Shown here: one piece after another, positions 3,247 to 55,360 of the stretch
Numbering within the stretch: the first letter of the stretch is position 1
Layout of the letters: the number at the start of each line of letters is the position of its first letter
From: Fimbriiglobus sp.
GTDB taxonomy: Bacteria; Planctomycetota; Planctomycetia; Gemmatales; Gemmataceae
DNA length: 56,592 nt
Assembly: GCA_025362195.1 (NCBI GenBank)
Contig: JANYHV010000354.1
Location: forward strand, 1-56,592
Reading direction: 5' to 3'
Translations under genes and position numbers: made by a program
The notes under the pieces: generated by a model
What the model was told of the DNA's origin: nothing
Database searches by the model: none
Seen by the model: the letters and a program-made list of their open reading frames with translations, nothing else

Positions 3247-3264
3247 TCGCAAACACCGTGCCGC
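3247..3264 (-). promoter_or_regulatory. Sigma-54 (-24/-12) promoter of the 73-aa acidic protein gene
   Basis: Read on the minus strand the site is GCGGCACGGTGTTTGCGA. GGCACG and TTGC match the RpoN consensus and the GG and GC dinucleotides are separated by exactly 10 nt (GC at 3249-3250, GG at 3261-3262). The only consensus departure in the -24 block is C for T before GG. Transcription would start near 3237, giving a leader of about 36 nt to the GTG at 3201. Confidence 0.75.
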
Positions 3265-3276
3265 CGGTTCGCACAG

Positions 3277-4206
3277 TCACTTCTTGGGCTGCCGCAGGAA
3301 CTCGGCCAGCGTCGGGGCACCGTCCGGCGCGTTCTTGACCAGCGTGAAGAGCAGCCCGTAATCGCGGACGTAAATCTGGTACTTGCCCTGGGCCGGCCCT
3401 TTAGGTTGTCCCGTCGGGGCGTTGTAGTCGTCGAGCATCATCAACAACCAGACGCCGATGGCGTTCTCCCCTTCGACCGGCTGCACCGTATACGCACTCC
3501 TCACGCCGGGGTCCGTGTCGTGCGGGTAGCGAACAATCACCTTCGCACTCGCAAAGTCCCACTCTTTTATCAACCGCTCCAGCACGCCGATGACGGTTTG
3601 GTCCGCGTCAGTGGCCTTCACGGCGAATTTGACTTTACGCTGCAACAGATCGCGGAGCGAGTGGGATTGAGCCGGCGGTGTCGTGTATGTAGCGTCTAAC
3701 CACCTCGACGAGGTTATCGCGTCAAGAGTGTACAATGACGGTACGCCTTTCGGGGCTTGCGTCGCCTCCTTCTCGGCTTGCTTGAACAGTTCCGCGAAGG
3801 CGAGTTGGCGCTTGACAGTCTGCAACTCGGCGACGACTCGGGCGTACTCCTCCACACTGATGCTGCCCGACTTGTGGGCGGCTTCCATCCGCTCGAACTC
3901 TTTCGTCTTGGTCGCCACGTCGGTCTTCGCCTGGTCGTACTTCGCCTGATTCATCCTCGACTCGATGGCGACCTTGAGCTTGGCCTGGTCGAGGGCCGCC
4001 TGAGCCTCCATCAGCCGCGCCTCGGCGATGCGGATGTCGGGGTGCGTCACCGCCAATTTTTCGAGGTAAGAGTAAACTTCGCTAAGGACAACACCCTCCG
4101 TCGGCACTTTCACTTCGGGGGCCGGTTGCGGCTTTGCCGGCGGGACCGGTGGGGCCGGGGGTTGCAACAGCACCGCCACCAACATCGTTAACACAGTGTG
4201 CGTCAT
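3277..4206 (-). CDS. Hypothetical secreted protein with a coiled-coil N-terminal half, 309 aa
   Basis: The start at 4204-4206 is preceded by AGGAGA about 7 nt upstream and opens a signal peptide (MTHTVLTMLVAVLLQPPAPP) followed by a Pro/Lys spacer. Residues of roughly 45-125 form long charged helices (IRIAEARLMEAQAALDQAK and following), similar in character to the helical hairpins of TolC or HlyD-type proteins but with no clear family match. The C-terminal half has alternating strand and helix segments that could be a small globular domain. It lies 20 bp downstream of the 167-residue membrane protein and the ECF sigma gene on the same strand, so it is likely part of that operon and may be an envelope component controlled by it. 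Function not recognised. Confidence 0.65.
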   Translation of the reverse strand: MTHTVLTMLVAVLLQPPAPPVPPAKPQPAPEVKVPTEGVVLSEVYSYLEKLAVTHPDIRIAEARLMEAQAALDQAKLKVAIESRMNQAKYDQAKTDVATKTKEFERMEAAHKSGSISVEEYARVVAELQTVKRQLAFAELFKQAEKEATQAPKGVPSLYTLDAITSSRWLDATYTTPPAQSHSLRDLLQRKVKFAVKATDADQTVIGVLERLIKEWDFASAKVIVRYPHDTDPGVRSAYTVQPVEGENAIGVWLLMMLDDYNAPTGQPKGPAQGKYQIYVRDYGLLFTLVKNAPDGAPTLAEFLRQPKK

Positions 4207-4226
4207 CGTCGTCTCCTGAAAAAGGG

Positions 4227-4730
4227 TCAGTTCTTCAGCGCCATGAGCAGCCAACTGTCGCTCGCGGCGATGGCCCGGCCGTCGGGGCCGGCGGCGGCGA
4301 GGTGCAGGCGGTAGCAGCGGGCCGCCTGCTTCACGTCGGTGCGGGATTTCAAGAAGGCGTCCCCGGCGCGGCGGTAGTACGCCGCGACTTCGGCCGACTC
4401 GGTCGCCAACTCGGCCTTCAACTCGTATTGCTCGGCCGTCCACTCGACGGGCGGCGTCACTTCACTCGGCACCGGCCGCGGCTCCGGGGCCGATTCGACG
4501 TGTACCGGCGGCGACGCGGTCGCCACCGCCTCCGGGATCACGACCGAACCCCGGCCGGCGAAGAAACTCGCCGCCACTAGCGCGATCAGCCCGGTCGCGG
4601 TCGTCGCCCGGCGGAGCCAGACGCGGCGGCGGATCGGCCGGCGGCTGGCCGCGAGAATCGTCGTGCGCAACGCCGCGTCGTGGTACGGCCGGGGGGTTAA
4701 CAGGGGGAGCAGGTCGTCATCGGTCGGCAT
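4227..4730 (-). CDS. Single-pass membrane protein overlapping an ECF sigma gene, candidate anti-sigma factor
   Basis: This 167-residue protein has a short cytosolic N-terminus (MPTDDDLLPLLTPRPYHDAA), a basic stretch, one membrane helix at about residues 45-62 (TGLIALVAASFFAGRGSVV), a proline-rich linker and a C-terminal helical domain. Its start codon lies inside the ECF sigma gene with a 14-nt overlap and a GGAG box 5 nt before the ATG, so the two are translationally coupled. Genes in this position next to an ECF sigma factor commonly encode the membrane-anchored anti-sigma factor. No zinc-binding HxxxCxxC motif is visible in the N-terminal region, so a classical ZAS anti-sigma domain is not supported. 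The role is inferred from context only. Confidence 0.6.
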   Translation of the reverse strand: MPTDDDLLPLLTPRPYHDAALRTTILAASRRPIRRRVWLRRATTATGLIALVAASFFAGRGSVVIPEAVATASPPVHVESAPEPRPVPSEVTPPVEWTAEQYELKAELATESAEVAAYYRRAGDAFLKSRTDVKQAARCYRLHLAAAGPDGRAIAASDSWLLMALKN

Positions 4731-5265
4731 GGTCGCTCCGTTCGTAAGCCGCGCGGAAGGCGTCGCGCGCCCGGGTCAGCAGCGATTCGACGGCCTTCTC
4801 GGTCTCGCCCCAGTCGGCGGCGATCTCCCGCACCGTCCGCCCGTCGAGGTACTTGGCCCGCAAGACGGCCTCGTGCCGTTCCGGCAGCGCCGCCAGTGCC
4901 TCGGCCACCGCCGTGCCGTCGTGCCGGTGCGGGCAGGCGGCGTGCTCGGGCAACGGCCGGTGCCGGGCACCGTGCCGGCGGCGCGCCCGCAGTTGGTTGC
5001 GGACGACGTTGCGGGCGACGCCGCACACCCAGCCGGCGAACTCTCCCCGGGCCGGGTCGAACTGGCGGACCGTGCGGGCGGCCGTCAGCCAGGTTTCTTG
5101 CAGGCAATCGTCCGCCAGGTCCTTGACCCCGCCGCACCGCCAGCGGACGAACGCCTCGACCGGGGCGTACGTCCGGCCGACCCAGTCGGCCCAGGCGTCG
5201 GCGTCCCCGGCTAGGGCGGCCCGGCGGTCGTTCGCATCGCGCCGGGCCGTCGATTCGTCGGGCAT
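4717..5265 (-). CDS. ECF-type RNA polymerase sigma factor (sigma-70 family), 182 aa
   Basis: The protein has only the two domains of extracytoplasmic-function sigma factors. Region 2 is at about residues 35-97, with the conserved ADDCLQETWLTAAR helix and FAGWVCGVARNVVRNQLR. Region 4 is at about residues 122-175, with ALAALPERHEAVLRAKYLDG and a helix-turn-helix TVREIAADWGETEKAVESLL that would read the -35 element. Length is typical for the class. It is expected to direct RNA polymerase to a small set of promoters in response to an envelope or stress signal. The downstream overlapping membrane protein is the obvious candidate regulator. The 127-bp region upstream, shared divergently with the phosphatase gene, holds no promoter I can assign with confidence. 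Confidence 0.88.
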   Translation of the reverse strand: MPDESTARRDANDRRAALAGDADAWADWVGRTYAPVEAFVRWRCGGVKDLADDCLQETWLTAARTVRQFDPARGEFAGWVCGVARNVVRNQLRARRRHGARHRPLPEHAACPHRHDGTAVAEALAALPERHEAVLRAKYLDGRTVREIAADWGETEKAVESLLTRARDAFRAAYERSDHADR

Positions 5266-5392
5266 GACGGGGATTGTCCGGGCCGGTTGGGAATCCTTCG
5301 CGGGAAATCCGCGCCGGGTCGGCGGGCAGAACAGGCTTGTATGCCGGGAGCGGCTTCCCTACGTTAGAGGTATCGAACTCTGCGGGGCCGCC

Positions 5393-6336: not shown

Positions 6337-6625
6337 ACCGCCCATGCCCGAAACCCCACGCCCCGCCCCTGACCTCCTCACGTTCACCGCGTCTCCCCGC
6401 TGCGGCGCGGATTTCCCGGCCTCGATTTCGGCCGGCTCTCCCCCGAACGATACTTTTGGCACAGTGGTTGCAATAATGTTTCGCAACGGTCCTGTGGATG
6501 TCTCGAAAGAGATTGCCCCTCGATAGGTATCATGGATGACCGATTGCCCGGGCCTCGGGCGGTCGATTCGCCCATCAATCCGGGCGGGACTCGGTTTCAA
6601 CCCCCCTCACCTGGAAGTACCCGCC
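6337..6625. other. Intergenic region between rpiB and the ArsR-like gene
   Basis: The 289-bp region carries a near-consensus sigma-54 promoter at 6456-6473. An imperfect inverted repeat (CCGGCC, 8 nt, GGCCGG) lies upstream of the promoter around 6413-6435 and could be an activator site, but that is a guess. The short open frame at 6344-6526 crosses the promoter and is not called as a gene. Confidence 0.6.
6456..6473 (+). promoter_or_regulatory. Sigma-54 (-24/-12) promoter of the ArsR-like gene
   Basis: The site reads TTGGCACAGTGGTTGCAA. TTGGCAC and TTGCA match the RpoN consensus, with GG at 6458-6459 and GC at 6470-6471 separated by exactly 10 nt. Transcription is predicted to start near 6483, leaving a leader of about 143 nt before the ATG at 6626. 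The matching activator (bacterial enhancer-binding protein) is not encoded in the window. Confidence 0.85.
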
Positions 6626-7054
6626 ATGACTGCGTCACTCGATACGGAAAGCGATCGGTTCATGATTTCGCTCGACGACTCCCGCGCCATTGCCGCCACT
6701 TTGGCCGGCCTGGCCGACCCGATTCGGCTGCAAATCCTGCAGTTGCTCCTGCCCGGCCCGCTGTGCGTCGGCGACCTGGCCCGGCACCTGAAACTGCCGA
6801 TGGTGAACACCTCGCACCACCTGAAGGTGATGCGCCGGGCGGCCATCCTGGACCACGTCAAGCAGGGCCGCATGGTCATGTACTCCGTCAGCCCGAAGGT
6901 TTACACGTCCGGCACCCCGGAGTTCCCGAACGGCCTCTTGAAGGTCGGCTTCTGGGAACTCCGCCTGGGCAGCCCGGCCGCCGCGACCAACGGCAAGGCC
7001 GGCCACGCCGCCAACGCCCCCCGCCCCGGCAAAGCCGCGTCCGCGGCGTCTTAA
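6626..7054 (+). CDS. ArsR/SmtB-type winged-helix regulator, 142 aa
   Basis: Residues of about 15-92 form an ArsR-type winged helix: ATLAGLADPIRLQILQLLL, then LCVGDLARHLKLPMVNTSHH as the recognition helix region, then the wing around QGRMVMYSVS. The metal-sensing CxC motif of ArsR/SmtB sensors (ELCVCDL) is replaced by PLCVGDL, so arsenic or heavy-metal sensing by that site is unlikely. A low-complexity Ala/Gly/Lys tail follows from about residue 118. The ATG at 6626 has GGAAG 8 nt upstream. Control by a sigma-54 element is unusual for this family and suggests the regulator is switched on under a specific stress or nutrient signal. It converges with the next gene, the two stop codons overlapping by 3 nt. 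Confidence 0.88.
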   Translation: MTASLDTESDRFMISLDDSRAIAATLAGLADPIRLQILQLLLPGPLCVGDLARHLKLPMVNTSHHLKVMRRAAILDHVKQGRMVMYSVSPKVYTSGTPEFPNGLLKVGFWELRLGSPAAATNGKAGHAANAPRPGKAASAAS

Positions 7055-7704: not shown

Positions 7705-7763
7705 CGATTTTGTCCCTGGTAAGTGACCGTGCGTCGGACCGCCGGGCGGGCTATTATGAGCGC

Positions 7764-9143: not shown

Positions 9144-9154
9144 ACGCCGCCGGC

Positions 9155-21597: not shown

Positions 21598-24500
21598 ATG
21601 CGGCACGGACGACTTTGGCTCTTCGCCCCCTTGCTCGTGGTCGGCGCGTTCGCCCTCGTTTCCGCCGGCCAGCCGCCGAAGCCCGCGCCGCCGGCCGCGC
21701 CGCCCCCGGCCGCCGAAGAACCGGACGACACGGACGCCGAGGAGGCCAAGGACAAGGCGATCGCCGAGCGGTTCCGCAAGGTCCTCGAAGGCAACCCGCG
21801 CCGCGGCACCGCCCTCGACAAGCTGTACGGCTACCACGTCGAGCGGGGCACGCTGGACAAGCTCGTCGCCGAGTACGCGGCCCGCACCAAGGCCGACCCG
21901 AAGGACGGCACGGCGTGGATGATCGTCGGCCTGATCCAGGCCCAGCGGGGGCAGGACGGGGCGGCCGTCGCGGCACTCACCAAGGCCGAGGAGACGCTGA
22001 CCGCGAGTGCCCTGCCGTCGTTCTACCTGGGCCAGGTGCTCGTCCTCGTCGGCCGGCCGGAAGACGCCGCGGGCGCGTTCGAGCGGGCCATCCTGCGCAA
22101 GCCGAACCGGAACGACCTGCTCGACATTTACGGCTCCCTCGGCCGCGTCTACCAGCGGGCCCAGAAGACCGACAAGGCCCTCGACGTGTGGACCCGGCTC
22201 GAAGCCCAGTACCCCGACGACGCCCGCGTCCAGGAGCAAATCGCCACCGCCCTGGCCGACGAGGGGCAGTACGACCAGGCGCTGCCGCGGCTCGAAAAGC
22301 TCGCCAAGCTGACCGACGACAAGTACCGCCAGACGACCTTCCGCATGGACGCGGCGGACATCAAGGTGAAACTCAAGAAGTCCACCGAGGCCCTCGCCGA
22401 CTTCGAAAAACTGCTGGCCGAACTGAACCCCGAGAGCTGGCTGTACCGGGACATCCGCCGCCGCATCGAGGACGTGTTCCTCCGGAACGACGACCTCGCC
22501 GGGCTGGCCAAGTACTACGAGAAGTGGCTGGCCGCCAACCCGACGGACGTGGACGCGGCCGCCCGGCTGGCGAAGAACCTCGTCGCCCAGGGCCGCGGCC
22601 CGGACGCCCGCAAGTGGCTCGAAAAGGGCCTGGAGATCGCGCCGTCGAACAAGAGCCTGCGGCAGGCGCTCATCGACCAACTCGCCAGCGAAGGGGACTT
22701 CGCCGGCGCGGCCGCCCAGTACGAGGCGATGGCCAAGACCGACCCGGGCAACCCGGACGTGCTCCGCGAGTGGGGCAAGCTCCTCGCCCGGGACACGGCC
22801 AAGCCCGAGGCGGAGCGCAAAGCGGCCGCGGCGGCGGTCTGGCGGAAGATCCTCGACAAGAAGCCGACCGACCCCGTGGTCACGTCGCAGGTCGCCGACC
22901 TGCACCGCCTCGGCGGCCTGACGGACGAGGCCGTCGCCCTGTACAAGAAGGCGATCGAACTCGCCCCGAAGGACCCGCAGTACCGCGAGTACCTGGGCGA
23001 GTACTACCACAACTTGAAGAAGCCGGGCGACGCCCTGGCCACCTGGCGGCCCAGCGCCGAGGGCGAGAACCGCAGCGGCAAGAACCTCGCCCGGCTCGCC
23101 GAGGTGTTCGCCGGGTTCGGCTACCGCAAGGAGGCCATCGACGCGATGACCCAGGCGATCTCGCTCGAAAAGGACGACTTCAACCTGCTCACGACCTACG
23201 CCGACCTGCTCCACCAGGAGGGCCGCAACGAGGACGCCCTGGGCCAGATCGACCTGGCGGCCAAGTTCACCAGCAACCCCGACGAGGTCGAGCAAATCCT
23301 GTCGGCCCGGATCAAGATTTACCAGGCCCTCGACCAGCTCGCCGACCGCATCGACGAGTTGCAGAAGGACCTCGCGGCGGGCAAGAACGCGACCGGCGAG
23401 CGGTTCATCGTGCTGTCCCGGTTCTACGAGGCGAACAAGCAGCCGGACAAGGCCGTCGAGGCGGTCGTCAAGGCGACGCAGATCGCCCCGCGGTCGGTCC
23501 CGGCGCTGACCGCCGCGGCCCGCATCCACGAGGCCGGGGGCAACCTCGAAGCGGCCGTGGACGCGAACAAGAAGCTCGCCCTGATCGACCGCCGCTTCCG
23601 GACGGACTACCTGACGCAGGTCATGAAGCTCGAACAGCGGCTCGGCCGCCGGGACGCCGCGCTGGCCGCCGGCAAGGACCTGCTCGCGTCCGCCCCCGGC
23701 AACCCGGACGTGTACAAGACGTACTCGGACCTCTGCTTCCAACTCGGGGAAATGGAAGAGGGCCTGGAAGCCCTCCGCCGCTCGGTCCGGGCGAACCCCA
23801 GCGAACCGGGCGGCCTGAACACCCTGGCCAACGCGCTGTCCGAGCGCGGCCGGCAGGGCGAGGCGATCGAACTCCTGTGGCGGGCCTTCGAGAAGACCAA
23901 CGACCTCGAAGGCAAGCTCGGCGTCATCGACCGCCTGGCCAACCTGTACCTCGAAGCCAACCAGTTCGACAAGCTCCTCGAACGCCTCGAGCGCGAGCGG
24001 CGGGAGGCCGACAAGACCCGCGAGTACACCCTGTGCATCGCCCAGGCGTACCAGTCGGCCGGCGACCTCGGTACCGCCCGCCAGCAGCTCGAACGCCTGC
24101 TCACCGAGAACACCCGGGACGCCAACCTGCTCGGCCAACTGTCGCAGTTGAGCGAGCAAGAGGGCGACCTGCCGTCCGCTTTGAAGTACCAGCGGCAACT
24201 GGCCGCGTCCGCGACGCAGAACTTCGACGCGCAAGTGCGGCTGGCCCAACTGCTGTTGAAGTCCGGCGAGGGCGAAGAAGCCGCGACCGTCTGGGTCAAG
24301 TCGGTCGCCGAGAACAACGAGCCGCACCGCAACCTGCAGGCCATCGACCAGCTCGCCGCGACCGACCGCCTGGACACGGCCCTGGCCATCCTCGCGCGGA
24401 TGCTGGCGAACCGGCCCGGCCAGTGGGAACTCGTTTACCGCCAGGGCGCGCTGCTCATGGCCAAGGGCAAGCCGGACGAGGCCGCGGCGCGGTTCGCCGC

Positions 24501-27500
24501 CCTGCTCGCGCTCAAGCTCCCCGACGACGAACTCGGCGAAGTGTTGCTCAATCAGCTCAAGGGCAAGTCGGTCAAGAAGAAGGCCGACGGGGCCAAGGGT
24601 CCGCCGCCCCCGCCGCAACTGATGCGCGTCAACAAGGGGGTGTACGAACCGGGCGTCCCGCCGCTGCAGCGCCGCACGCAGAACCTGTACGCCATCCGCC
24701 AGGCCGTCGGCATGGAGAACCGCAACTACTACCGGGGCCAGCCGGCGAACTTTTACGCGCCGCAGGACTTCGGCGAGGCCCGCATGGCCGCGCTCGGCTG
24801 GCTGTACGAGATCGGCCGCGAGAAGAACGCGACCGACGCCTTCGTCAAGCCGTACAAGGCCGCGCTCGCCGCCCCCAAGCACGACCCCCGCATCCTGTGG
24901 GATTACTACTATTTGCAGACGATCCGCCAGGACAACCGCGACCTGCCCGAGGTCGCGGGGCGGCTCGCCGACGGGTCGGACGACCCGGCCGCGGTCCTCG
25001 CCTTCCTGACCCACGCCGCCGACCGCACCGGCGCGCCGGTCGAGGGGATGCGGTACCGCCGGCCCCGGACCGCGCCGACGGAGGCCGATCTGACCGACAA
25101 GACCCCGCCGCTGCCGCCGGAGCGCCTGGAGGGGATGATCGCCGCGTTCAAGAAATTGAAGAAACTCCGCGCCGACTGGGCCACGCCGGACCTCGCGTCG
25201 GCCGTCGGCACCGAGTTGAAGCGGGCCAAGCGGCTGCCCGAAGAGAAGGCGATGTACGACGAGTTGCTCGCCGCCGCGACGACGACGGACAAAGTGTCGC
25301 TGGCGCTGAACGCCGCGGCCGAGAAGGACGACCTGGAAACGGTCCTGCGGCTGTACCGCAAGCTCGAAACCCTCCAGGGACCGCCCAAAACGGCCGCCGC
25401 CGTCGCCGCCCTGCCGACGCGGAATAACTACTGGCCGCTGCTCCAGGTCATGGCCCGGCGGGCCGAGGCGAAGAAGCCGGACGACGTGCTGGCCGTCGCC
25501 GACGCGTTCCTGGAGATGGCCCGCCGGCAGAACATCGCCGCGCCCAAGTCGTTCTCGATGCCGACCCGCGGCCGCCAACAGCAAGCGGGGGTCAACATCA
25601 GCGTCTACTCCGGGTGGAGCGGGGGGTCGCCCAACTTCAACGCCCAGCAGGTGATCTTCCCGTCGCCCAACGACTACTACGACGAGTCGATGATCGCGCT
25701 GCTGTACAACGCCCACGCGATGTTCAAGGCCGCCGACCTGCAGACCGACTTGCACGCCCACGTCAAGAAGCAACTCGCCGCCGCCGCCGGGGCCGAGAAG
25801 ATTTACCTGCAACTCGCGCTCGCGTACCTGCTCTGGTGGGCCGAGGAAAAGGACGACGCCCTGGACCAGCTCCAGGCCGCGGCGCTGTCGGCCGCGGGGG
25901 ACACCAAGTTCACCCTCGAAGTCGCCGCCCTGCGGGAGCAGAACAACGAACACGCCGAGGCGCTCGCGCTACTCGACAGCGTCACCCCGACCGACCACCA
26001 GGTCATGCAGTCCCGCGAGCAAAGTGCCCTGCGGCTCGCCGAACGGACCGGCAACGTCGCCCGCGCCCGCCAGGCCGCCGAGCGCCTGTTCGGCCTCCGA
26101 CTCGACACCGAGACGCAACTCGACCTGGCGGCCAAGATGCACCGCCTGGGCATGCACGAACTCGCCGAGACCGTCCTCGCCCGCGCGCAACGGCAGGCCG
26201 GGAACAAGACCGGGACGCTGCTGCAGCTCATGAACCAGTACCAGACCCAGGGGCAGTCCGAGCAGGCCGTCACCATCGCCCGGCAACTGCTGCGCAAATC
26301 GCCGTCCGGGGGGGCGACCCGCGGCCAGGACGACGGGGACAACGTCCGCAACCAGGCCGTCGGCGTCCTCGCCCGGTCGGGGCAGTTGAAGGAGATCGTC
26401 GCCCGCGCCGAGGACCAACTCAAGGCGTCGCCGAAGTCCGTCCAGATCCACCAGACCCTGCTCAGCTACTACCAGGCGACCGCCGACAAGGACAATCAGA
26501 AGGCGACCATCCTGAAAATCCTCGAACTCAAGCCGGACGACGCGAAGCTCCGCTTCAGTTCGGCCCAGACGCTCAACAATCTGGGCGACAAGGAGGCCGC
26601 GATGGCGAACTACAAGCTCGCGCTCAAGAAGGACCCGTCGCTCTTCCAGAACAGCTACTACGAGCTGCAACGGCTCTTCAGCGAGGCGAACAAGTTCGAG
26701 GACTTGGTCGCCATCGTCGAGGACGCCGACATGAAGAAGTTGAGCACCCAGTCGTACTACATCATGTCCATGATCGAGCCGATGATGGAGAAGCCGAAGT
26801 CCCGGGACCTGGGCATGAAGCTGTTCAAGAAGGCGTGGGCCGCCTTCCCGGCCGAGCGGCCGTCGATGCTCTCCCAGTTGAACCGCGAGGAACTGTGGAA
26901 GCTGCCCGAGCTGTACGACTACGCCCGGGAGGCGATCCTGCCGACCTCGGACAGCGAGAACATCGACCCGTGGGGGGCGCTCGGCGGCCTGTCCCGGTTC
27001 CTCTCGACCGCCCGCAAGCAGCACCGCGTCCCGGAGTTCAAGGCGCAGGTCGAGGCCAAGTTGAAAGCCGACCCCAAGTGGCTGGCCGGCCGGGCGCTCC
27101 TGGCCGTCATCGACATCCAGACCGGCGAGAAGGAGCGGGGCAAGAAGGCGTGGGTCGAGCTGTTCTCGGACGACAAGCTCGACATCCCGTCCGCCGCCCG
27201 CTTCTCCCTGGCCCAGGAACTCGAGTACTACGCCGGCGTCGAAGAGGTCGTCATCCCCACCCTGGAAAAGGGCCTCGACGACGTGCTCGATGACGCCGAC
27301 GGGAACAGCGACTTCTCCTCGTCGCCGGCCCGCCGGCTGGTCTGGTGGTACGAGCAGGTCGGCCGGACGGACGACGCCCGCAAGCTCCTCGTCCGCATCA
27401 GCCGGGCGAAGCCGAACAACCCGGGGTACGACGAGGCGTACCTGAACTACCGGCGGGCCAACGACGCCATCGCCATGGCCACCGAAATGATTCGGTTGAA

Positions 27501-33288: not shown

Positions 33289-36093
33289 ATGCGACACGCT
33301 TGGTTCACGCTCGGGTTGGTCCTGCTGACGGCCGCGGCGACCCCCGCCGCGCCGCCGGCCGAGGCGTTCCCCGAGGCGACGCAGTTCGACGAGAAGCCGG
33401 CCACGCTGACGCACAACGACGAGTTGTTGTGCGTCGCCTACTCGCCGGACGGGGCACTCGTGGCCGCCGGCGGCGCGGACAAGAGCGTGCGCCTCTGGGT
33501 GAGTACGAGCAGCAAGCCGGCCGGGGCGCTGGAGGGGCACACCGACGCCGTGTCCGCCGTCGCCTTCCGCCGCGACGGCGCGCGGATCGTCACCGGCTCC
33601 TACGACAAGACCGCCGTCGTCTGGGACGTGGCCACGAAGAAGCCGGTCGCCACCCTGAAGGGCCACGACAACGCCGTCCTGGGCGTCACGTTCCTGGCCG
33701 ACGGCCGGGTCGTGACCGTCGGCGCGGACAAGTCGTTGAAGCTCTGGGACGGCGACACCGGCAAGTTGCTCGGCACGCACGACGAGCACAAGGGGGCCGT
33801 CTGGTGCGTCGCCCTGTCGCCCGACGGCAAGACGCTGGCCACCGGCAGTTCGGACCGCCGCATCAACCTCTGGGACGTGGCCACGCTCGCCGTCAAGGCG
33901 TCGCTGAAGGGGCACACCGGCTTCGTCCGCTGCGTCGCCTTCTCGCCCGACGGCAAGCGGCTCGTGTCGGGCGCGGAGGACAACGGCACCCGCGTCTGGG
34001 ACCTCGCCGCCGGCAAGTCGGTCCTCACCCTCGGCGGGCACACCGACTCGGTCCTGAGCGTCGCCTTCTCGCCGCGCGGCCAGTTCGTCGCGTCGGTCAG
34101 CGCGGACAAATCGCTGCGGCTGTGGGACGGCGCGACCGGCGGCGAACTCGCCTACTCCGAGGAGGCCCACGGCGAAGCGGTCAACGCGGTCGCCGTCCAC
34201 CCGAGCGGCCGGCAAATGGCGAGCGCGTCCGGCGACCGCACCCTGGGCATTTGGACTTCCGCGTTGCCGCGCGTCTTCGCCAGCGCGTCGAGCGCGAGCG
34301 CCGGCAACCCCGGGAGTGCGAGTGCGTTCAACGTCGCCTCAAACCGCGTCGCCGTCGTCGGCGACAAGTACGCGATCCTCGTGCAGGACCGCGCGACCGG
34401 CACCGTCACGGCCACGCTGAAAGCGCACAAGGCGGTCGTCCAGCACCTCGCCTTCTCGCCCGACGGCAAGCTCCTGGTGAGCGTCGGCCGGGACCGCCTC
34501 GGCTACCTCTGGGACACCACGACCGACACCACGACCGGCACCCCGCTGGCCAAGCTCGACGGGCACCGCGGCTTCGTCAAGTCGTGCGCGTTTTCGCCCG
34601 ACGGCCGCCGCTTCGTCACCGCCGGGTCGGACAAGACGGTGCTCGTCTACGACACCCCGATGACGCCCGCCGTACCGAAGGGCTTCCGCGAAACGCTGGT
34701 GCTGGAGGGGCACACCGGGGGCGTCGGCGTGCTCGCTTTTTCGCCCGACGGCCGGTACCTCGCGTCCGGGGCCGACGCCGCCCGGAAGAACGGCCCGGCC
34801 GAGGTCAAGGTCTGGGACTTGACCACCGGCAAGCCGGTCGCGGAATGGGCCGACCACACCCAGGACGTGACCGCGCTCGCCTTCCACCCGACCCGGCCGG
34901 TCCTCGTCAGCGGCGGCGGCGACCCCGGCTTCCGCGTCCACGATTACGCCACCGGCAAGGCCGTCAAGTTCCACGGCACGCAGGCGACCGTCACCGCGCT
35001 CGCCTTCTCCCCGGACGGCAGTGAACTGTTCGCCGGGACCGCGGGCAAGTCGCTGATCGCGTTCGACGCCACGACCTGGACCGAGCAGGCCCGCCTCGTC
35101 GGCCACACGACCGCGCTCACGTCGGTCGCCGTCGGCCCCGGCAAAACCCTGCTGACGATGACCGCCGACCAGACGGTCCGCACCTACGCCCTGGGCCGCG
35201 CGGCGACCCCGACGGTCCGCTTCACCGGGCACGAAAGTTGGGTCGTCGGCCTGCACCTCACGCCCGACGGCAAGAAGCTCGTCAGCGCCGGCTGGGACGG
35301 CCTCGTCCGCGTCTGGGACCCCGAGACGGGTAAGGAACTCCTGGCGATGGAGGACTTGACGGGCAAGGTCCTGTCGCTGGCGATGAGCCGGGACGGCAAG
35401 CGACTCGTCACCGGCGGCGGGGCCGGCGAACTCGTGCTGTGGGACATCGAGGACGCTACCTCCGTCGCCAAGTTCGAGGAGTACGACGAGGAGGAAGACG
35501 TGACCGCGGTCGCCTTCACGCCCGACGGTAAGCGGATCGTCGCCGGGTGCAACGACGGGACGGTGCGTATTTTCGACGTGACCACCGCGAAGGAACTCGG
35601 CCGCATCAAGACGAAGGAGCCGATCGAAGGCCTCGCCGTCAGCCCGGACGGCAAGCACGTCGTGATTTGCGGGGGCGAGGCGTTCGCCTGCCGCGTCCAC
35701 GACCTCGACACCAAGAAGGAAGTCCTCCGCCTGCGCGGCAACGGCGCGACCGTCCACTGCCTGGCGTACTCGCCCGACGGCAAGACGATCCTGACCGGCT
35801 CCGGCGACCGCACCCTGCGCCTCTGGGACGCGGCCACCGGCAAGGAACTCCGCAAGGTCGAGGCCCACCTCGGGGCCGTCCGCGCGGCCGCCTTCACGCC
35901 CGACGGCAAGACGATCGCCAGCGTCGGCCAGGACCACGTCGATCGCCTCTGGGACGCCGCCACCCTCAAGCCACTGGCAATGTTCGAGGCCCACGAACGC
36001 CCGGCCGTGAGCGTCGCCGTCAGCGCCGACGGCAAGACCGTCTACTCCGGCGGCGCGGACAAACTCGTCGTCCGCTGGCAAGCGCCGAAGTAA
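33289..36093 (+). CDS. Secreted WD40-repeat protein, about 21 blades, 934 aa
   Basis: A signal peptide (MRHAWFTLGLVLLTAAATPA) is followed by an almost unbroken series of WD40 repeats, each with the pattern VxxVAFSPDGKxLxSGSxDxTxRLWD. By eye I count 21 units, one (around 34330-34400) degenerate, which would fit three seven-bladed propellers in a row. No kinase or enzyme domain is attached, so this is a pure propeller protein likely used as a protein-protein platform outside the cytoplasmic membrane. It begins 15 bp after the giant TPR protein with GAGGGGG upstream and is almost certainly cotranscribed with it; TPR and WD40 scaffolds together suggest a large extracytoplasmic assembly. The first blades are the most regular. 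The stop is at 36091-36093, abutting a repeat element. Confidence 0.9.
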   Translation: MRHAWFTLGLVLLTAAATPAAPPAEAFPEATQFDEKPATLTHNDELLCVAYSPDGALVAAGGADKSVRLWVSTSSKPAGALEGHTDAVSAVAFRRDGARIVTGSYDKTAVVWDVATKKPVATLKGHDNAVLGVTFLADGRVVTVGADKSLKLWDGDTGKLLGTHDEHKGAVWCVALSPDGKTLATGSSDRRINLWDVATLAVKASLKGHTGFVRCVAFSPDGKRLVSGAEDNGTRVWDLAAGKSVLTLGGHTDSVLSVAFSPRGQFVASVSADKSLRLWDGATGGELAYSEEAHGEAVNAVAVHPSGRQMASASGDRTLGIWTSALPRVFASASSASAGNPGSASAFNVASNRVAVVGDKYAILVQDRATGTVTATLKAHKAVVQHLAFSPDGKLLVSVGRDRLGYLWDTTTDTTTGTPLAKLDGHRGFVKSCAFSPDGRRFVTAGSDKTVLVYDTPMTPAVPKGFRETLVLEGHTGGVGVLAFSPDGRYLASGADAARKNGPAEVKVWDLTTGKPVAEWADHTQDVTALAFHPTRPVLVSGGGDPGFRVHDYATGKAVKFHGTQATVTALAFSPDGSELFAGTAGKSLIAFDATTWTEQARLVGHTTALTSVAVGPGKTLLTMTADQTVRTYALGRAATPTVRFTGHESWVVGLHLTPDGKKLVSAGWDGLVRVWDPETGKELLAMEDLTGKVLSLAMSRDGKRLVTGGGAGELVLWDIEDATSVAKFEEYDEEEDVTAVAFTPDGKRIVAGCNDGTVRIFDVTTAKELGRIKTKEPIEGLAVSPDGKHVVICGGEAFACRVHDLDTKKEVLRLRGNGATVHCLAYSPDGKTILTGSGDRTLRLWDAATGKELRKVEAHLGAVRAAAFTPDGKTIASVGQDHVDRLWDAATLKPLAMFEAHERPAVSVAVSADGKTVYSGGADKLVVRWQAPK

Positions 36094-51365: not shown

Positions 51366-51389
51366 GACCACCTCGGGGGTGTTGAAACG

Positions 51390-51418: not shown

Positions 51419-51450
51419 CTCGACTCGAACCGGGCCGCGACTTGAGCGAC

Positions 51451-51909
51451 TTACTTGCCGGTGGCCAGGAGGACAGCTTCGACGGCGGCGACGTTGTCGA
51501 GCTTGGTGTCGTCGGGTTCGACGGCGATGCCGCCCTCGCCCTCCATGCGGAGCAGGGCGTGCCGGTCTTCGATTTGGTGAACGGTGGGCAACTCCTGGAA
51601 GTCCCCCCTTAGGGCGCGCAAGGCAATCTTTTCTCGTTCGAGGTCGAGCGGATCGGTCGGGCCGGTGGACTTCGCCGCGAACCGTGCCCCGAACAGCTTG
51701 GTGAGAATCTTTTCGCCGCCGGCGATGATCGCCGAACTCATGGACGGCTGGACCGCGTCGGCCGTCGCCGCTTCGATTTCCCGCAGGCGTTCGTCGATGG
51801 CGCACGGGCCGCCGTCGAGGATCTTGACCAGCCGCGCCGGCAAGTCTTCCGCCGAAGTCGTCGGGGCGAGCGGGACGGGGAGGGCGGCTTGCGTGTTCTC
51901 GGTGACCAT
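51451..51909 (-). CDS. Hypothetical cytosolic protein, 152 aa, under a sigma-54 promoter
   Basis: The protein has no signal peptide or membrane segment. A Pro/Ala-rich start is followed by helical segments such as RLVKILDGGPCAIDERLREI and GGEKILTKLFGARFAAK and a charged C-terminus. I recognise no family. GGAGG lies 9 nt before the ATG at 51907-51909, and a -24/-12 element ends 34 nt further upstream of the ATG (predicted start 51943). A hairpin terminator follows its stop, so it forms a one-gene unit inside the stress-like cluster. Confidence 0.65.
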   Translation of the reverse strand: MVTENTQAALPVPLAPTTSAEDLPARLVKILDGGPCAIDERLREIEAATADAVQPSMSSAIIAGGEKILTKLFGARFAAKSTGPTDPLDLEREKIALRALRGDFQELPTVHQIEDRHALLRMEGEGGIAVEPDDTKLDNVAAVEAVLLATGK

Positions 51910-51952
51910 CGGATCAATCCTCCGGGTGTCGTCGTTTGACCGAGAAATGTTG

Positions 51953-51970
51953 ATGCATCTCTCGTGCCGT
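51953..51970 (-). promoter_or_regulatory. Sigma-54 (-24/-12) promoter of the 152-aa protein gene
   Basis: Minus-strand sequence ACGGCACGAGAGATGCAT: GGCACG matches the -24 block and ATGC the -12 block (one mismatch from TTGC), with GC at 51955-51956 and GG at 51967-51968 separated by exactly 10 nt. Predicted transcription start 51943 leaves a 34-nt leader to the ATG at 51909. Confidence 0.7.
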
Positions 51971-51998
51971 CTGAGGATACCGGAACGCCGGTCCGTGC

Positions 51999-53513
51999 TT
52001 ACTCGGCCTCCGCCAGGTTGCTCACCGCCGGCCCGTGCAGGCAGGTGCCCTTGGCGTCGAACCGCGACCCGTGGCACGGGCAATCCCAACTCGCCTCGCC
52101 GGGGTTCCAGCGGACGAGGCAGCCCATGTGCGGGCAGACCGCCGACAGGGTCGTGACCTCGCCGGCCGCGCTCTTCGACACGGCCAATTTGGTCAGCCCG
52201 CGGCGGACGATCGCGCCCTGCCCCGGGGGGATGTCGTCGGCACTCTTCACGTCCCCGCGGGTCAGCCAGTCGGTGTACTGCGCCGCCAGGTTGGCGTTCT
52301 CGGCGAGCAGGGTCTTGAGCGCCCCCGGCATGACCCGCGACGGCGAGTAGAGGGCGGCCGCCGCGCTCGGCCGGCCGGCGATCAGGTCGGGCAGGAGTTG
52401 CCCGGCGATGGTGCCGTGGGTCATGCCCATGCCCGAGTCGCCGGTGACGACGTACACGTTCGGGCCGTTCCACGGGGCCGGGCCGATGAGCGCGAGGCCG
52501 TCGGCCGTCTCGAACACCTGGCCCGACCAGTGGTGCCGCACCGCCCCGGCGTCGGGGTAGCGCTGGCGCGTCCACGCTTCGAGGTCGCGCCACCGGTCCG
52601 CCTGGTCGGCGGCCTGGCCGGTTTTGTGGTCCGCCCCGCCGACGACGGCCACGTCGAACGGGTCGCCCGGCCCGCCCGGCTGGAAGCGGACGTATTGGTA
52701 CGGGTCTTCGGTGTCCCAGACGATGGCGTCCTCGTAACTGCCCTTCGGGACTTCGAGCGTCACGACGTAGGTGGTGTACGCCCCGACCTTGGTGTGCAGG
52801 GTCGTGCCGCCCTCGAACGGGTTGTTCGCCGCGACCACGACCGCCTTGGCCGTGACCGTCAGGCCGTGCGTGGTGGTGACCGTGCACGCGTCGCCGCCGC
52901 GGACCTTTTCGACGACCGTCTCGACGTGCACCACGCCGCCGAGTTTGCGGACCGCGGCCGCCAGCCCGCGCAGGTACTTGATGGGGTGGAACCGGGCGTG
53001 GCCGTCGAACCGCAGGGCGTCCAGCGGTGGCGTGCCGGGGTACGCCATCGTCGTGCGGGTGTACGGAATGCCGAGCCGCTTCAACGCCCCGTCTTCGTCG
53101 TCGAGCACCTTCGGCCCGTCCGCCCCCGGCACGAGGTACGCCGGCACCCGGTGGAAGTCGCAGTCGATCCCCTCGGCGTCGGCGATTCGCTCGATGGCGT
53201 CCACCGCCGCCCGGTGGTCGGTGGCGGCCTGGCGGGCGTTGTCGTCCCCGCGGATCGAGGCGAGGTCGCCGAAGGTGTCGTCGGCGTGCCAGGTGAGTTG
53301 GGCCGTCGTCCGCTCGGTTTCGCCGGTAACGGCATGCGGCTTGGCGTCGAGGACGACGACCCGCTTGCCCTCCTTGGCCAACAGGTACGCGGTCGTCAGC
53401 CCGGCCATGCCGCTGCCGACGACGCACACGTCGCAGGTCGTGTCGGCCGGCAACCGCCCGTCGTCAGGGGCGGGGTCGGCGGGGCACCAGAGGGAGCGGG
53501 TGTCGGCGTTCAT
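51999..53513 (-). CDS. FAD-dependent oxidoreductase with C-terminal Rieske [2Fe-2S] domain (YhfW-like), 504 aa
   Basis: The N-terminal Rossmann motif GSGMAG at residues 33-38 follows VCVV and leads into a D-amino-acid-oxidase-type FAD domain (LTTAYLLAKEGKRVVVLDA and later PAPWNGPNVYVVTGDSGMGM). A Rieske domain closes the protein with CPHMGC (C460 and H462) and CPCH (C478 and H481) as the four cluster ligands. B. subtilis YhfW has the same layout. The reaction is unknown; electron transfer from an amine or similar substrate to an acceptor is inferred. The ATG at 53513 gives the Rossmann start at the right place, but its upstream ribosome-binding site is weak and no -24/-12 element is seen between it and the terminator at 53554-53585. 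Confidence 0.88.
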   Translation of the reverse strand: MNADTRSLWCPADPAPDDGRLPADTTCDVCVVGSGMAGLTTAYLLAKEGKRVVVLDAKPHAVTGETERTTAQLTWHADDTFGDLASIRGDDNARQAATDHRAAVDAIERIADAEGIDCDFHRVPAYLVPGADGPKVLDDEDGALKRLGIPYTRTTMAYPGTPPLDALRFDGHARFHPIKYLRGLAAAVRKLGGVVHVETVVEKVRGGDACTVTTTHGLTVTAKAVVVAANNPFEGGTTLHTKVGAYTTYVVTLEVPKGSYEDAIVWDTEDPYQYVRFQPGGPGDPFDVAVVGGADHKTGQAADQADRWRDLEAWTRQRYPDAGAVRHHWSGQVFETADGLALIGPAPWNGPNVYVVTGDSGMGMTHGTIAGQLLPDLIAGRPSAAAALYSPSRVMPGALKTLLAENANLAAQYTDWLTRGDVKSADDIPPGQGAIVRRGLTKLAVSKSAAGEVTTLSAVCPHMGCLVRWNPGEASWDCPCHGSRFDAKGTCLHGPAVSNLAEAE

Positions 53514-53553
53514 GGCGACTTCTTCGAGGAGAATGGGGTGCGACGGGGACGCG

Positions 53554-53585
53554 AAAAAAGCCGCCCGAACTGGTTTCGGGCGGCT
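53554..53585 (-). terminator. Rho-independent terminator of the TIGR03067-like gene
   Basis: On the minus strand a perfect 11-bp stem (AGCCGCCCGAA and its complement, 53559-53569 with 53575-53585) closes a 5-nt loop and is followed by six T residues (A run 53554-53559, the last of which pairs in the stem). It lies 20 nt after the stop of the 200-residue protein gene at 53606. Confidence 0.9.
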
Positions 53586-53605
53586 CGTGAAGCACACGCT
53601 TCGGG

Positions 53606-54208
53606 TTACTTGGCCGGGGCAGCGCCTTCGCGCTTGAGGACGATGCTGCAGTACGACTTGGCCGTCGGGTTGCCGCCGGTCGCGGCCGCCTCGCGGTCCG
53701 CGCCGGGCCGGCCGCCGTCAACGGCCGGCGTCGCGTCGGCCCCGCGGCCGCCGGCACCCCGGGCGTCGTCGTGGATGCACACGGCGAGGAAGTCGCTGGT
53801 CATCACGTACACGCCCGACTTCGCGCCGCCCGCCGCCGGGTCGCGGCCGGCGGTGTCGGCCGGTTTGCCGGCTTCAGCGGGCTGGGTACCGGTCGCGTTC
53901 TGCTCCATGACTTTGATCGTCCCGTTCTGGCCGAACACGACTTTCAGGGTCATGGCCGGCTTGCCGTCCTTGGCCGTACACGTGATCGTGTTGCCTTCGC
54001 ACTTCACGGTCATGTTCTTGGCTTCCGGCATCGGCTGGCCGTTCTTTTCCAGGCAGACGATGGTCCACTGGCCGTCGAGCGCCTTGTCCGCCGGAGCGGC
54101 GCGGTCTTGCGGCTGGCGGTCCGCCGGCGGCGCGGCGGGGGTCGCCGGGGCGGCGGGCGGTTGCAGGGCGACGAGGGCGAGCACGCTGGTCATCACGAGG
54201 GTGTTCAT
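53606..54208 (-). CDS. Secreted protein with TIGR03067-like domain, 200 aa, under a sigma-54 promoter
   Basis: The ATG at 54206-54208 (GGAG 7 nt upstream) opens a signal peptide, MNTLVMTSVLALVALQPPAA. The next part, with LDGQWTIVCLEKNGQPMPEA, matches the TIGR03067-type domain common in planctomycetes, with strands ITCTAKDGKPAMTLKVVFGQ. A Gly/Ala/Asp-rich low-complexity tail contains a short cysteine motif (VCIHDD) and ends in a charged segment. Its own -24/-12 promoter (54301-54318) and intrinsic terminator make it a one-gene unit. Function unknown; envelope or stress association is inferred from export and neighbours. Confidence 0.78.
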   Translation of the reverse strand: MNTLVMTSVLALVALQPPAAPATPAAPPADRQPQDRAAPADKALDGQWTIVCLEKNGQPMPEAKNMTVKCEGNTITCTAKDGKPAMTLKVVFGQNGTIKVMEQNATGTQPAEAGKPADTAGRDPAAGGAKSGVYVMTSDFLAVCIHDDARGAGGRGADATPAVDGGRPGADREAAATGGNPTAKSYCSIVLKREGAAPAK

Positions 54209-54240
54209 CTTGGACTCCGAAGTCTGAACGGGTGAAGCGA

Positions 54241-54290
54241 TCCGGCCTGAGACCCTCGGCCGGAAGGAGGAGTCGCCGGCTGGCGGCGAC
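54241..54290 (-). promoter_or_regulatory. Two hairpins in the 5' leader of the TIGR03067-like gene
   Basis: The leader after the predicted start (54291) contains two inverted repeats on the minus strand: GTCGCCGCCAGCCGGCGAC at 54272-54290, and 7-bp arms TCCGGCC/GGCCGGA at 54241-54264. A hairpin right at the 5' end could shield the transcript from decay. The effect is not shown. Confidence 0.4.
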
Positions 54291-54300
54291 GGCAAACCCG

Positions 54301-54318
54301 TTGCAACGATTGTGCCAA
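54301..54318 (-). promoter_or_regulatory. Sigma-54 (-24/-12) promoter of the TIGR03067-like gene
   Basis: Minus-strand sequence TTGGCACAATCGTTGCAA has TTGGCAC and TTGCAA, the best consensus agreement together with the 6456 site, with GC at 54303-54304 and GG at 54315-54316 separated by exactly 10 nt. Predicted start about 54291, leaving a leader of about 82 nt to the ATG at 54208. Confidence 0.85.
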
Positions 54319-54341
54319 GGGTACGGGTCGCCCGGGCCGAA

Positions 54342-54518
54342 TTATTGTTTCGTCGGCGGCCGCCGAACGGGAGCCTTCCGAGCTTTCGGCTTCTGGTCGA
54401 GACCGACCTCCTCCGATGCATCGGCCTCGTCTTCCGGCCCGCCTTCGGTCGGCTCCTTGACGGTCGCCCGCGGCAAGTCTTTGTCGGGGTCGGCGGACTT
54501 CTTCTCGGGTTTCTTCAT
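54342..54518 (-). CDS. Small, highly charged disordered protein, 58 aa
   Basis: A short protein that starts MKKPEKKSADPDKDLPRATV, rich in Lys, Glu, Asp and Pro with a basic end and no hydrophobic core. AGGA lies 5 nt before the ATG at 54516-54518, and the gene starts 15 bp after the DUF2892-SRPBCC gene on the same strand, so it is cotranscribed behind that gene's sigma-54 element. It is similar in character and in the DP-KDLP segment to the 73-residue protein at 2980-3201. Function unknown; a hydrophilin-like protective role is only a suggestion. Confidence 0.6.
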   Translation of the reverse strand: MKKPEKKSADPDKDLPRATVKEPTEGGPEDEADASEEVGLDQKPKARKAPVRRPPTKQ

Positions 54519-54533
54519 GGCGGTCCTATCGGG

Positions 54534-55298
54534 TTAGGCGTGGACGATTTTGGTCGGGATGCCGTTGGTCTCGATCAGCTTCTTGAAGCGGAGCAGGTCT
54601 TCGCTCACCTGCCGCTGCGGGTTCTCGCCGAAGAGTTTGGCCACGGCCGTGCCGAGTTGGCCGCCCGGCGGGTCGTACTTCAGGTTGACGCGGACCTCGG
54701 TCCCGCCCGGGACGGCGCGGAAGTGGACCGACCCGGCCGAATCCACGTCGGCCCCGGGCAGGGACTTCCAGGCGATGACCCGGCCCGGTTCGTCCCGGGT
54801 GATCTTGGCGTCCCACTCGACCCGCAGGCCGAGCGGCCCCTTGGCCACCCAGTGGGACTCGCCGTCGGTCGTCGTGTCCACGTCGAGGAGGTGCGTCATG
54901 AACCGCGGCAGCCGCTCGAAGTCGCGCCAGAAGTCGTACGTCTCGCGGGCCGACTTCATGACCGTGATCGACGCCTCGACGTGGGTCCCGTGCCCGGCGG
55001 CGATGACGGTGTTCGCGGCGGTCGAGTCCGAGGTGCTGTAGTTCAGCGCCTGGTAGGCCGGGCAGTTGCCACTCAGTCCGCGGTACATCAGGTACCCGCC
55101 GAGGGCCGTCGTCAGGAGCGACGGCTGCTTCTCGGTCAGGCCGTACAGGGCGACCGCGCCGCCGGCGATCAGGGACGCCCACCGCTCCGGGCTGCTGAGG
55201 TTCGTCGGCAGGTCGGGGAGGGCATCGACGGCGCGGGTGAGGGTCGAACCGGGTCCGCCGACGGACTTCGCGGCGGTGGCCAAAAGTGTCGTCGCCAT
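54534..55298 (-). CDS. DUF2892-type membrane domain fused to an SRPBCC/cyclase-dehydrase-like domain, 254 aa
   Basis: The N-terminal part has two membrane-type helices around LIAGGAVALYGLTEKQPSLL and LGGYLMYRGLSGNCPAYQAL; the last carries the small-residue G-x-C-P-x-Y motif of DUF2892/YgaP-type membrane domains. Residues of about 110-245 are an SRPBCC/START-like ligand-binding domain (VEASITVMKSARETYDFWRD, WVAKGPLGLRVEWDAKITRD, and GGTEVRVNLKYDPPGG). Such proteins bind hydrophobic molecules and occur with general-stress genes. The ATG at 55298 has GGAG 5 nt upstream, and a -24/-12 element lies upstream with a 34-nt leader. It is followed after 15 bp by the 58-residue gene. Confidence 0.82.
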   Translation of the reverse strand: MATTLLATAAKSVGGPGSTLTRAVDALPDLPTNLSSPERWASLIAGGAVALYGLTEKQPSLLTTALGGYLMYRGLSGNCPAYQALNYSTSDSTAANTVIAAGHGTHVEASITVMKSARETYDFWRDFERLPRFMTHLLDVDTTTDGESHWVAKGPLGLRVEWDAKITRDEPGRVIAWKSLPGADVDSAGSVHFRAVPGGTEVRVNLKYDPPGGQLGTAVAKLFGENPQRQVSEDLLRFKKLIETNGIPTKIVHA

Positions 55299-55342
55299 GT
55301 CGTCTCCAGTGGGGGAAAATCTCGGGGGCACGGGGCTCCGTC

Positions 55343-55360
55343 GTGCAAGTGCGGTGCCGG
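55343..55360 (-). promoter_or_regulatory. Sigma-54 (-24/-12) promoter of the DUF2892-SRPBCC operon
   Basis: Minus-strand sequence CCGGCACCGCACTTGCAC contains GGCAC and TTGCA with GC at 55345-55346 and GG at 55357-55358 separated by exactly 10 nt. The base before GG is C rather than T. Predicted start near 55333, giving a leader of about 34 nt to the ATG at 55298. Confidence 0.75.

What the first reader, a model, noticed from the sequence alone, without database searches (positions are those of the whole stretch)
3247..55360. Five sigma-54 promoter elements form a local regulon of stress-type genes
Five elements at 3247-3264, 6456-6473, 51953-51970, 54301-54318 and 55343-55360 all have GG-N10-GC spacing, a GGCAC core and TTGC (four) or ATGC (one). 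Each lies just upstream of a supported gene, in the correct orientation. Targets are two small hydrophilic proteins, an ArsR-type regulator, a secreted TIGR03067-like protein, a 152-residue protein and a DUF2892-SRPBCC protein. From base composition I estimate roughly one such match by chance on both strands of the window, so five correctly placed ones look real. I did not exhaustively scan coding sequence. No activator is in the window, so the signal is unknown.
Basis: partly seen in the sequence, partly recalled or inferred. Interest (0 to 1): 0.85.

Follow-up and report, generated by a model that had tools for sequence, protein, structure and literature searches.

The report
Sigma-54 promoters of a stress regulon
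The five promoter elements look real, and they belong to a genome-wide set of sigma-54 switches that also sit in front of heat-shock, iron-storage and other stress-type genes, suggesting that these bacteria run a broad stress response through a sigma factor better known for nitrogen and motility genes.

Summary
In detail: GGCAC-N5-WTGC occurs exactly five times in the window (about one expected), always intergenic and facing a gene. The sites are not a local regulon but five of 31 promoter-placed sites found genome-wide: 46 of 83 matches are intergenic (16% expected by length), and 28 of 83 are promoter-placed against 13 of 245 with wrong spacing. A matrix trained on other genomes ranks the same five first in the window. 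Targets elsewhere include GroES, DUF1328, DUF2383, DUF2171, DUF3309, YflT and Mn-catalase; a relative of another genus repeats this (GroES, GroEL, Dps, KaiC). The SRPBCC-gene site recurs in 16 of 19 relatives with a full-length orthologue. The best candidate activator, on contig C321, is an NtrC-type response regulator beside a CHASE3-PAS kinase and two sigma-54 stress genes; its orthologues lie within 7 kb of the window's 152-residue family in 9 of 21 loci. Support per site is uneven: strong for SRPBCC, fair for the 152-residue, TIGR03067-like and ArsR genes, weak for the small gene at 3.2 kb (0 of 11 relatives). No expression data were available, and no shared enhancer motif was found.

The parts
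55343..55360 (-). Sigma-54 -24/-12 promoter element (GGCACCGCACTTGC) of the SRPBCC gene
   Evidence: Pattern, matrix rank 3; intergenic site in 20 of 28 family loci, at -52 to -67 in 17 of the 20 loci with a full N-terminus
54534..55298 (-). SRPBCC protein with N-terminal YgaP-like (DUF2892) membrane part, 254 aa
   Evidence: Pfam PF03364, PF10604, PF11127 over cut-off
54342..54518 (-). 58-aa hydrophilic protein, 15 nt behind SRPBCC, probably the same transcript
   Evidence: Codon score; homologue next to SRPBCC in G007
54301..54318 (-). Sigma-54 -24/-12 element with the full consensus (TGGCACAATCGTTGC) of the TIGR03067-like gene
   Evidence: Pattern, matrix rank 4; other TIGR03067 genes behind such sites: L009 in the own genome, L311 in G011
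53606..54208 (-). Secreted-looking TIGR03067-like protein, 200 aa
   Evidence: TIGR03067 28.3 bits, below the curated cut-off of 40.15
51953..51970 (-). Sigma-54 -24/-12 element (GGCACGAGAGATGC) of the 152-residue gene
   Evidence: Pattern, matrix rank 2; kept in G007; intergenic site in 6 of 21 family loci
51451..51909 (-). 152-residue protein, no known domain
   Evidence: Codon score; homologues in 21 of 95 family genomes; 9 of 21 within 7 kb of the candidate activator gene
6456..6473 (+). Sigma-54 -24/-12 element with the full consensus (TGGCACAGTGGTTGC) of the ArsR-type gene
   Evidence: Highest matrix score of the window; kept in G007; absent from 28 more distant ArsR homologues
6626..7054 (+). 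ArsR-type regulator; start at ATG 6626 preferred over 6536 and 6662
   Evidence: PF01022 and NF033788 over cut-off; start kept in G007
3247..3264 (-). Sigma-54-like element (GGCACGGTGTTTGC), the least supported of the five
   Evidence: Pattern, matrix rank 5; absent from 11 of 11 relatives
2980..3201 (-). 73-aa hydrophilic protein, GTG start
   Evidence: Codon score; family found in 12 of 95 genomes; G007 homologue starts MPYTIDQDP

Best explanation
The five elements are sigma-54 (RpoN) -24/-12 promoters. They are members of a genome-wide regulon, conserved in part across the family, whose gene content resembles a bacterial general stress response. RNA polymerase with sigma-54 would wait at these promoters as a closed complex until an activated enhancer-binding protein opens it with ATP. 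The likeliest activator is the NtrC-type response regulator of contig C321 (receiver, sigma-54 AAA+ and Fis-type HTH domains), phosphorylated by the CHASE3-PAS histidine kinase encoded divergently beside it. Shown by computation: the sites, their intergenic placement genome-wide, their conservation, an RpoN gene with an RpoN box, the candidate activator and its gene neighbourhood. Inferred: transcription from these sites, the identity of the activator (about 0.45) and stress as the signal (about 0.6). The site at 3.2 kb is the least certain member.
For: Exactly five matches in the window against 0.99 expected, all intergenic and facing a gene. Genome-wide 46 of 83 matches intergenic and 28 of 83 promoter-placed, against 44 and 13 of 245 at other spacings (still 7e-8 for promoter placement without the window). 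A matrix from 102 sites of other genomes ranks the five as the top five of the window. RpoN with RpoN box ARRTVTKYRE. Stress-type targets in the own genome and in G011, where 72 of 98 examined matches are intergenic and 56 promoter-placed; 9 of 31 own targets have a homologue among the 56 G011 targets against 15 of 333 other genes. SRPBCC site in 16 of 19 relatives with a full-length orthologue. Candidate activator and kinase beside DUF1328 and DUF2383, both with sites, and within 7 kb of the 152-residue homologue in 9 of 21 loci.
Against: No expression or binding data. No shared enhancer motif upstream of the 31 own sites. The own genome has eight strong activator matches (seven nearly full-length, one cut by a contig end), so several regulators may share the promoters. 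Several targets have no evident stress role (DabA, MRJP-like, efflux proteins, pilin-like genes). Co-occurrence with the activator (26 of 26, 21 of 21, 23 of 25 genomes) may partly follow genome size. One genome with a conserved SRPBCC site, G091, showed no RpoN match; its assembly is in 1190 pieces. The small-gene site is not conserved.
Confidence: 0.72

Rival explanations
1. The sites are real sigma-54 promoters, but they answer to several activators with different signals; the stress flavour is a by-product of which gene families happen to have names.
For: Eight strong activator matches in the genome; mixed targets, among them a kinase-receiver-HD protein beside another activator on contig C104, efflux proteins and DabA; no common enhancer motif.
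Against: Overlap of targets between two genera (9 of 31 against 15 of 333) and many protective families in one set: GroES, GroEL, Dps, DUF2383, Mn-catalase, KaiC, YflT. Repeated neighbourhood of one activator with these genes.
Confidence: 0.21
2. The elements are conserved signals read by a protein other than RNA polymerase with sigma-54.
For: No transcript ends are known here; G091 has the SRPBCC site but no RpoN match.
Against: The sequence is the published sigma-54 consensus TGGCACN5-7TTGCT (PMC12316311, passage); RpoN is found in 87 of 95 family genomes; sites face genes at promoter distance.
Confidence: 0.05
3. The five matches are chance hits in a G+C-rich window.
For: 37 of 83 genome-wide matches do lie in coding sequence, about one match is expected in the window, and the 3.2-kb site has no counterpart in relatives. 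For a single site such as that one, chance stays possible.
Against: Intergenic and orientation bias at N5 that is not seen at other spacings; conservation across genera; matrix from other genomes.
Confidence: 0.02

Closest known systems
Predicted sigma-54 regulons of Planctomycetia (Carrera-Reyna et al. 2025, PMC12316311; passages read)
   Same: Sigma-54 promoters predicted before chaperones (GroEL, GroES, GrpE, DnaK cluster), ATP-dependent proteases, UspA proteins, MscS channels and NtrC/ZraR-type regulators in Planctomycetia.
   Different: The passages seen do not speak of a general stress response or of a master activator, and the words Gemmata, Dps, COG5487 and COG2261 were not found in the main text. 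Conservation of single promoters and linkage to one regulator are added here.
Sigma-54 and its activators in Pirellula strain 1 (Studholme and Dixon 2004; seen only as a reference, paper not held)
   Same: In silico sigma-54 promoters and activators in a planctomycete; PMC12316311 credits it with a csrA promoter.
   Different: Not read; I cannot say how far its gene set overlaps with this one.
EcfG/NepR/PhyR general stress response of Alphaproteobacteria (PMC8103513, passages read)
   Same: One regulated switch for protective genes; a histidine kinase feeding a response regulator.
   Different: There the regulator frees an ECF sigma factor by partner switching; here the promoters are of sigma-54 type and the regulator would be an ATPase that opens the promoter complex.
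RpoS and SigB general stress regulons (recalled)
   Same: Families such as Dps, DUF1328, YflT and catalases occur in them (recalled).
   Different: Sigma-70-family sigma factors with other promoter sequences.

Membership tests
Sigma-54-dependent promoter | -24/-12 sequence TGGCAC-N5-TTGC with fixed spacing | tested here: met
   Two of five have the full 15-base consensus, three have C for the first T, one of these ATGC for TTGC; bias at N5 and not at other spacings
Sigma-54-dependent promoter | RpoN in the genome | tested here: met
   PF04552, 2.4e-59; RpoN box ARRTVTKYRE
Sigma-54-dependent promoter | Position upstream of a gene in the right orientation | tested here: met
   46-191 nt by the gene caller, all five
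Sigma-54-dependent promoter | Upstream activator binding site (usual, not universal) | tested here: inconclusive
   No enriched spaced dyad upstream of 31 own sites
Sigma-54-dependent promoter | Transcription that depends on rpoN | not testable with these tools
   No expression data
NtrC-type enhancer-binding protein (C321 candidate) | Receiver, sigma-54 AAA+ and Fis-type HTH domains | tested here: met
   PF00072, PF00158, PF02954 over cut-off
NtrC-type enhancer-binding protein (C321 candidate) | GAFTGA sigma-54 contact motif | tested here: met
   GSFTGA variant in the own protein; 12 GSFTGA and 1 GAFTGA in the 13 of 30 orthologue loci where the search pattern matched
NtrC-type enhancer-binding protein (C321 candidate) | Acts on the window promoters | not testable with these tools
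   Only gene neighbourhood
General stress regulon | One regulated set of protective genes of many kinds | tested here: inconclusive
   Gene content fits; joint regulation not shown
EcfG/PhyR, SigB or RpoS system | The dedicated sigma-70-family sigma factor and its switch proteins | not tested
   Not searched in this genome; the restriction of these systems to other groups is recalled

The most novel reading that the evidence does not exclude
In this planctomycete family sigma-54 has taken the place of RpoS, SigB or EcfG as the general stress sigma factor: one CHASE3-PAS kinase and one NtrC-type regulator fire a regulon of chaperonin, Dps, ferritin-like, catalase, KaiC and small stress proteins, so that the general stress response here is enhancer-dependent and ATP-gated.
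Probability: 0.35. Interest if true: 0.8.

Novelty: new variant of a known kind. Interest (0 to 1): 0.62.

Why it matters
Which sigma factor runs a general stress response in planctomycetes seems open: none of the ten paper searches made here (some lists capped, most hits judged by title and start of abstract, subscription papers not held) pointed to one. A sigma-54 system would differ in kind from the known ones, because opening of the promoter needs an activated ATPase, which gives tight off-states and a single switch point. It would also suggest functions to test for families such as TIGR03067, DUF3309 and the 152-residue family. PMC12316311 proposes that high G+C content may hinder sigma-54 promoter recognition; this window is 70% G+C and the genome still shows a clear intergenic bias.

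Tried and rejected
Local-regulon reading: rejected as the main frame, since 26 of the 31 listed promoter-placed sites lie outside the window.

Chance in G+C-rich sequence: rejected for the set by spacing controls, conservation and a matrix from other genomes. Raw match numbers alone would not have shown it: N5 gives 83 matches (reversed pattern 49), but N6 gives 125 and reversed N6 217, so coding bias dominates raw counts.

Enhancer motif by spaced dyads: nothing convincing upstream of the own sites (best p 2.8e-4 before correction for tens of thousands of dyads). Lower p-values within orthologue groups were not pursued, since relatedness alone can give them.

The search for related loci with the C321 activator returned 80 loci, all distant homologues of at most 50% identity; not used.

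Counts that changed on checking. 152-residue family: 13 of 21 became 6 of 21, because in the others the match lies in the upstream gene by at least one codon model. SRPBCC: 17 of 28 became 20 of 28, mainly because chose other start codons. DUF2383: 15, from which L261 (match far from the start, an artefact) is dropped, leaving 14 of 26; 2 of 28 loci were not located. ArsR: 2 of 30 loci. Six intergenic, rightly oriented own-genome sites were left out of the 31 targets for distances under 15 or over 350 nt (L002, L005, L019, L023, L050, L065). Pfam was run on 20 of the 26 targets outside the window. Of the 15 control hits, two are neighbours of targets (GroEL behind GroES; the window's FAD-Rieske gene) and five hit one pilin-like gene. 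One search scanned ten first-guess frames, several of them wrong, and found nothing; one search replaces it. Gene calls come from a home-made codon-score caller, retrained for G011.
Full report
Check of the observation. The window is 70% G+C. GGCAC-N5-WTGC occurs five times on both strands, exactly at the five stated places, and in no called coding sequence of the window. Dinucleotide shuffles give 0.99 on average, and none of 100 reaches five; in 200 Markov sequences 1.5% do. TGGCACN5TTGC occurs twice, at 6457 and 54303. The consensus given in PMC12316311 is TGGCACN5-7TTGCT (passage).

Is the pattern a promoter in this genome? The own genome (G000; the window is contig C143; 5.66 Mb in 509 contigs, 87% complete) has RpoN with the box ARRTVTKYRE. 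PF00158 has 14 matches; eight are strong, seven of them nearly full-length and one cut by a contig end, and none is in the window. The pattern has 83 matches genome-wide. I fetched DNA around all 78 outside the window and called genes with a home-made codon-score caller. 46 of 83 are intergenic, although intergenic DNA is 16.0% of the surveyed 427 kb. Promoter-placed matches (intergenic, next gene on the same strand, 15-200 nt) are 28 of 83, against 13 of 245 for the same half-sites at spacings 0-4 and 6-30 in the same loci (Fisher 5e-10, and 7e-8 without the window). Raw counts would mislead: N6 gives 125 matches and reversed N6 217, because coding bias dominates them.

A test with other genomes. 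A matrix from 102 sites, none from the own genome or its closest relative G007, was run over the window. The five highest scores on both strands are the five elements (16.7 to 24.7); the sixth, 13.2, lies in coding sequence. Random Markov sequences of the same length hold 0.3 positions at or above the fifth score (40 sequences). All.

What the sites control. 31 sites of the own genome, five in the window, stand 15-350 nt before a gene on the same strand. Besides the window genes the targets include GroES, DUF1328, DUF2383, DUF2171, DUF3309, YflT, Mn-catalase, a sigma-70-family protein, HlyD and OEP efflux proteins, DabA, an AI-2E-type transporter, a kinase-receiver-HD protein and small hydrophilic proteins; L009 is a further TIGR03067 protein. 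Several of these families are known from general stress regulons elsewhere (recalled; for YflT the Pfam name says heat-induced). Others have no evident stress role.

The same in another genus. G011 is a near-complete relative of another genus (64% G+C in the fetched part). Of its 104 GGCACN5TTGC matches, the 98 listed on contig C1 were examined: 72 are intergenic and 56 promoter-placed (15-300 nt), against 45 and 17 of 110 at other spacings; intergenic DNA is 22.7% of these loci. Targets include GroES, GroEL, Dps and TIGR03067, KaiC and a branching-enzyme-like protein, PP2C, response-regulator-like proteins, and homologues of DUF2171 L025, of the SRPBCC protein and of the FAD-Rieske oxidoreductase at 51999-53513 of the window. 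Nine of the 31 own targets have a homologue among these 56, against 15 of 333 other genes of the fetched loci (Fisher 4e-5).

Conservation of each window site in 95 genomes of the family. SRPBCC: 20 of 28 loci have an intergenic GGCAY-N5-WTGC within 260 nt; of the 20 loci with the full N-terminus, 17 have it at -52 to -67, that is 16 of 19 relatives. Control spacings average 0.15 of 28 loci each. 152-residue family: 6 of 21, G007 included. ArsR: own and G007 only, 2 of 30. Small protein at 3.2 kb: the family is real, in 12 of 95 genomes, but 0 of 11 relatives have the site, and the sequence upstream of the gene differs even in G007. TIGR03067-like gene: no orthologue series was made; its support is the full consensus, the matrix score and two other TIGR03067 genes behind such sites. 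Outside the window, DUF2383 has a site in 14 of 26 located loci. RpoN is found in 87 of 95 genomes; G091 has the SRPBCC site but no RpoN match, in an assembly of 1190 pieces.

Candidate activator. On contig C321 stand DUF1328, DUF2383, a 104-residue protein weakly like YtxH (below the Pfam cut-off) and an NtrC-type response regulator, with a CHASE3-PAS histidine kinase divergent from it; DUF1328 and DUF2383 carry sites. Homologues of the regulator at E up to 1e-120 are in 43 of 95 genomes, among them 26 of 26 genomes with SRPBCC, 21 of 21 with the 152-residue family and 23 of 25 with DUF2383. Larger genomes have more of everything, so this is weaker than it looks. The regulator lies within 7 kb of the 152-residue homologue in 9 of 21 loci and about 16 kb away in 3 more. 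In G051 the regulator, DUF2383, DUF1328 and the 152-residue homologue stand in a row, the middle two with sites. In G007 the window genes IF-3, SRPBCC, the small hydrophilic gene and the 152-residue gene are contiguous. This ties a window gene to that regulator by neighbourhood, not by binding data. The regulator's own gene has no regular site. I found no shared enhancer motif, and other activators may serve part of the set.

Mechanism proposed. Stress is sensed by the CHASE3-PAS kinase; phosphate passes to the NtrC-type regulator; its AAA+ ring opens the RNA polymerase-sigma-54 complex waiting at GGCAY-N5-WTGC promoters; protective proteins are made. The steps beyond the sequence features are inferred from general knowledge of NtrC-type activators. 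In the window the SRPBCC promoter probably also serves the 58-residue gene 15 nt downstream.

Compared with what is known. PMC12316311 (passages read) reports chaperones, UspA, proteases and ZraR-type regulators behind predicted sigma-54 promoters in Planctomycetia, so sigma-54 control of heat-shock genes there is already proposed. The passages seen do not speak of a general stress response or a master activator. Studholme and Dixon 2004 on Pirellula is not held. Ten searches listed no paper whose title or start of abstract reports a sigma-54 general stress response in planctomycetes; two searches showed 20 of 136 and 12 of 27 hits. The family (probably Gemmataceae) is my inference from TIGR03067 and genome sizes; no tool named it.

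Verdict. Observation confirmed. Sigma-54 promoters are very likely for four of the five sites. The local regulon becomes a genome-wide, partly family-conserved, stress-type regulon. The activator is open, with one good candidate.

Noticed in passing
L379, L380, L381, L382, L384 (relatives) and L041 (own): A recurring island around the NtrC-type regulator: DUF1328, DUF2383, the 152-residue family, a Holin-X family protein, an AI-2E-type transporter, YtxH-like small proteins and an alpha-amylase-like enzyme, in varying order.
   Followed up: partly
window 51451-51909; L379:8706-9185, L380:8931-9410: Relatives of the 152-residue protein show two hydrophobic stretches, probably membrane helices, that the window protein lacks (by eye).
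   Followed up: no
window 2980-3201; L386-L396: The small hydrophilic protein belongs to an unnamed family with a core like SPYGP-P-G-DEAAGGADSSPYE, found in 12 of 95 family genomes.
   Followed up: partly
L041:3597-5006 and L263-L292: The candidate activator has GSFTGA in place of the usual GAFTGA sigma-54 contact motif; 12 of the 13 loci where the pattern matched (of 30) share it.
   Followed up: no
window 21637-33273: A 3878-aa protein with many TPR stretches and C-terminal DUF1581 and DUF1583 domains, followed by a 15-repeat WD40 protein at 33289-36093.
   Followed up: no
L187, L196 (relatives G045, G046): Three and four promoter-placed sites within about 3.3 kb beside the 152-residue gene.
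   Followed up: partly
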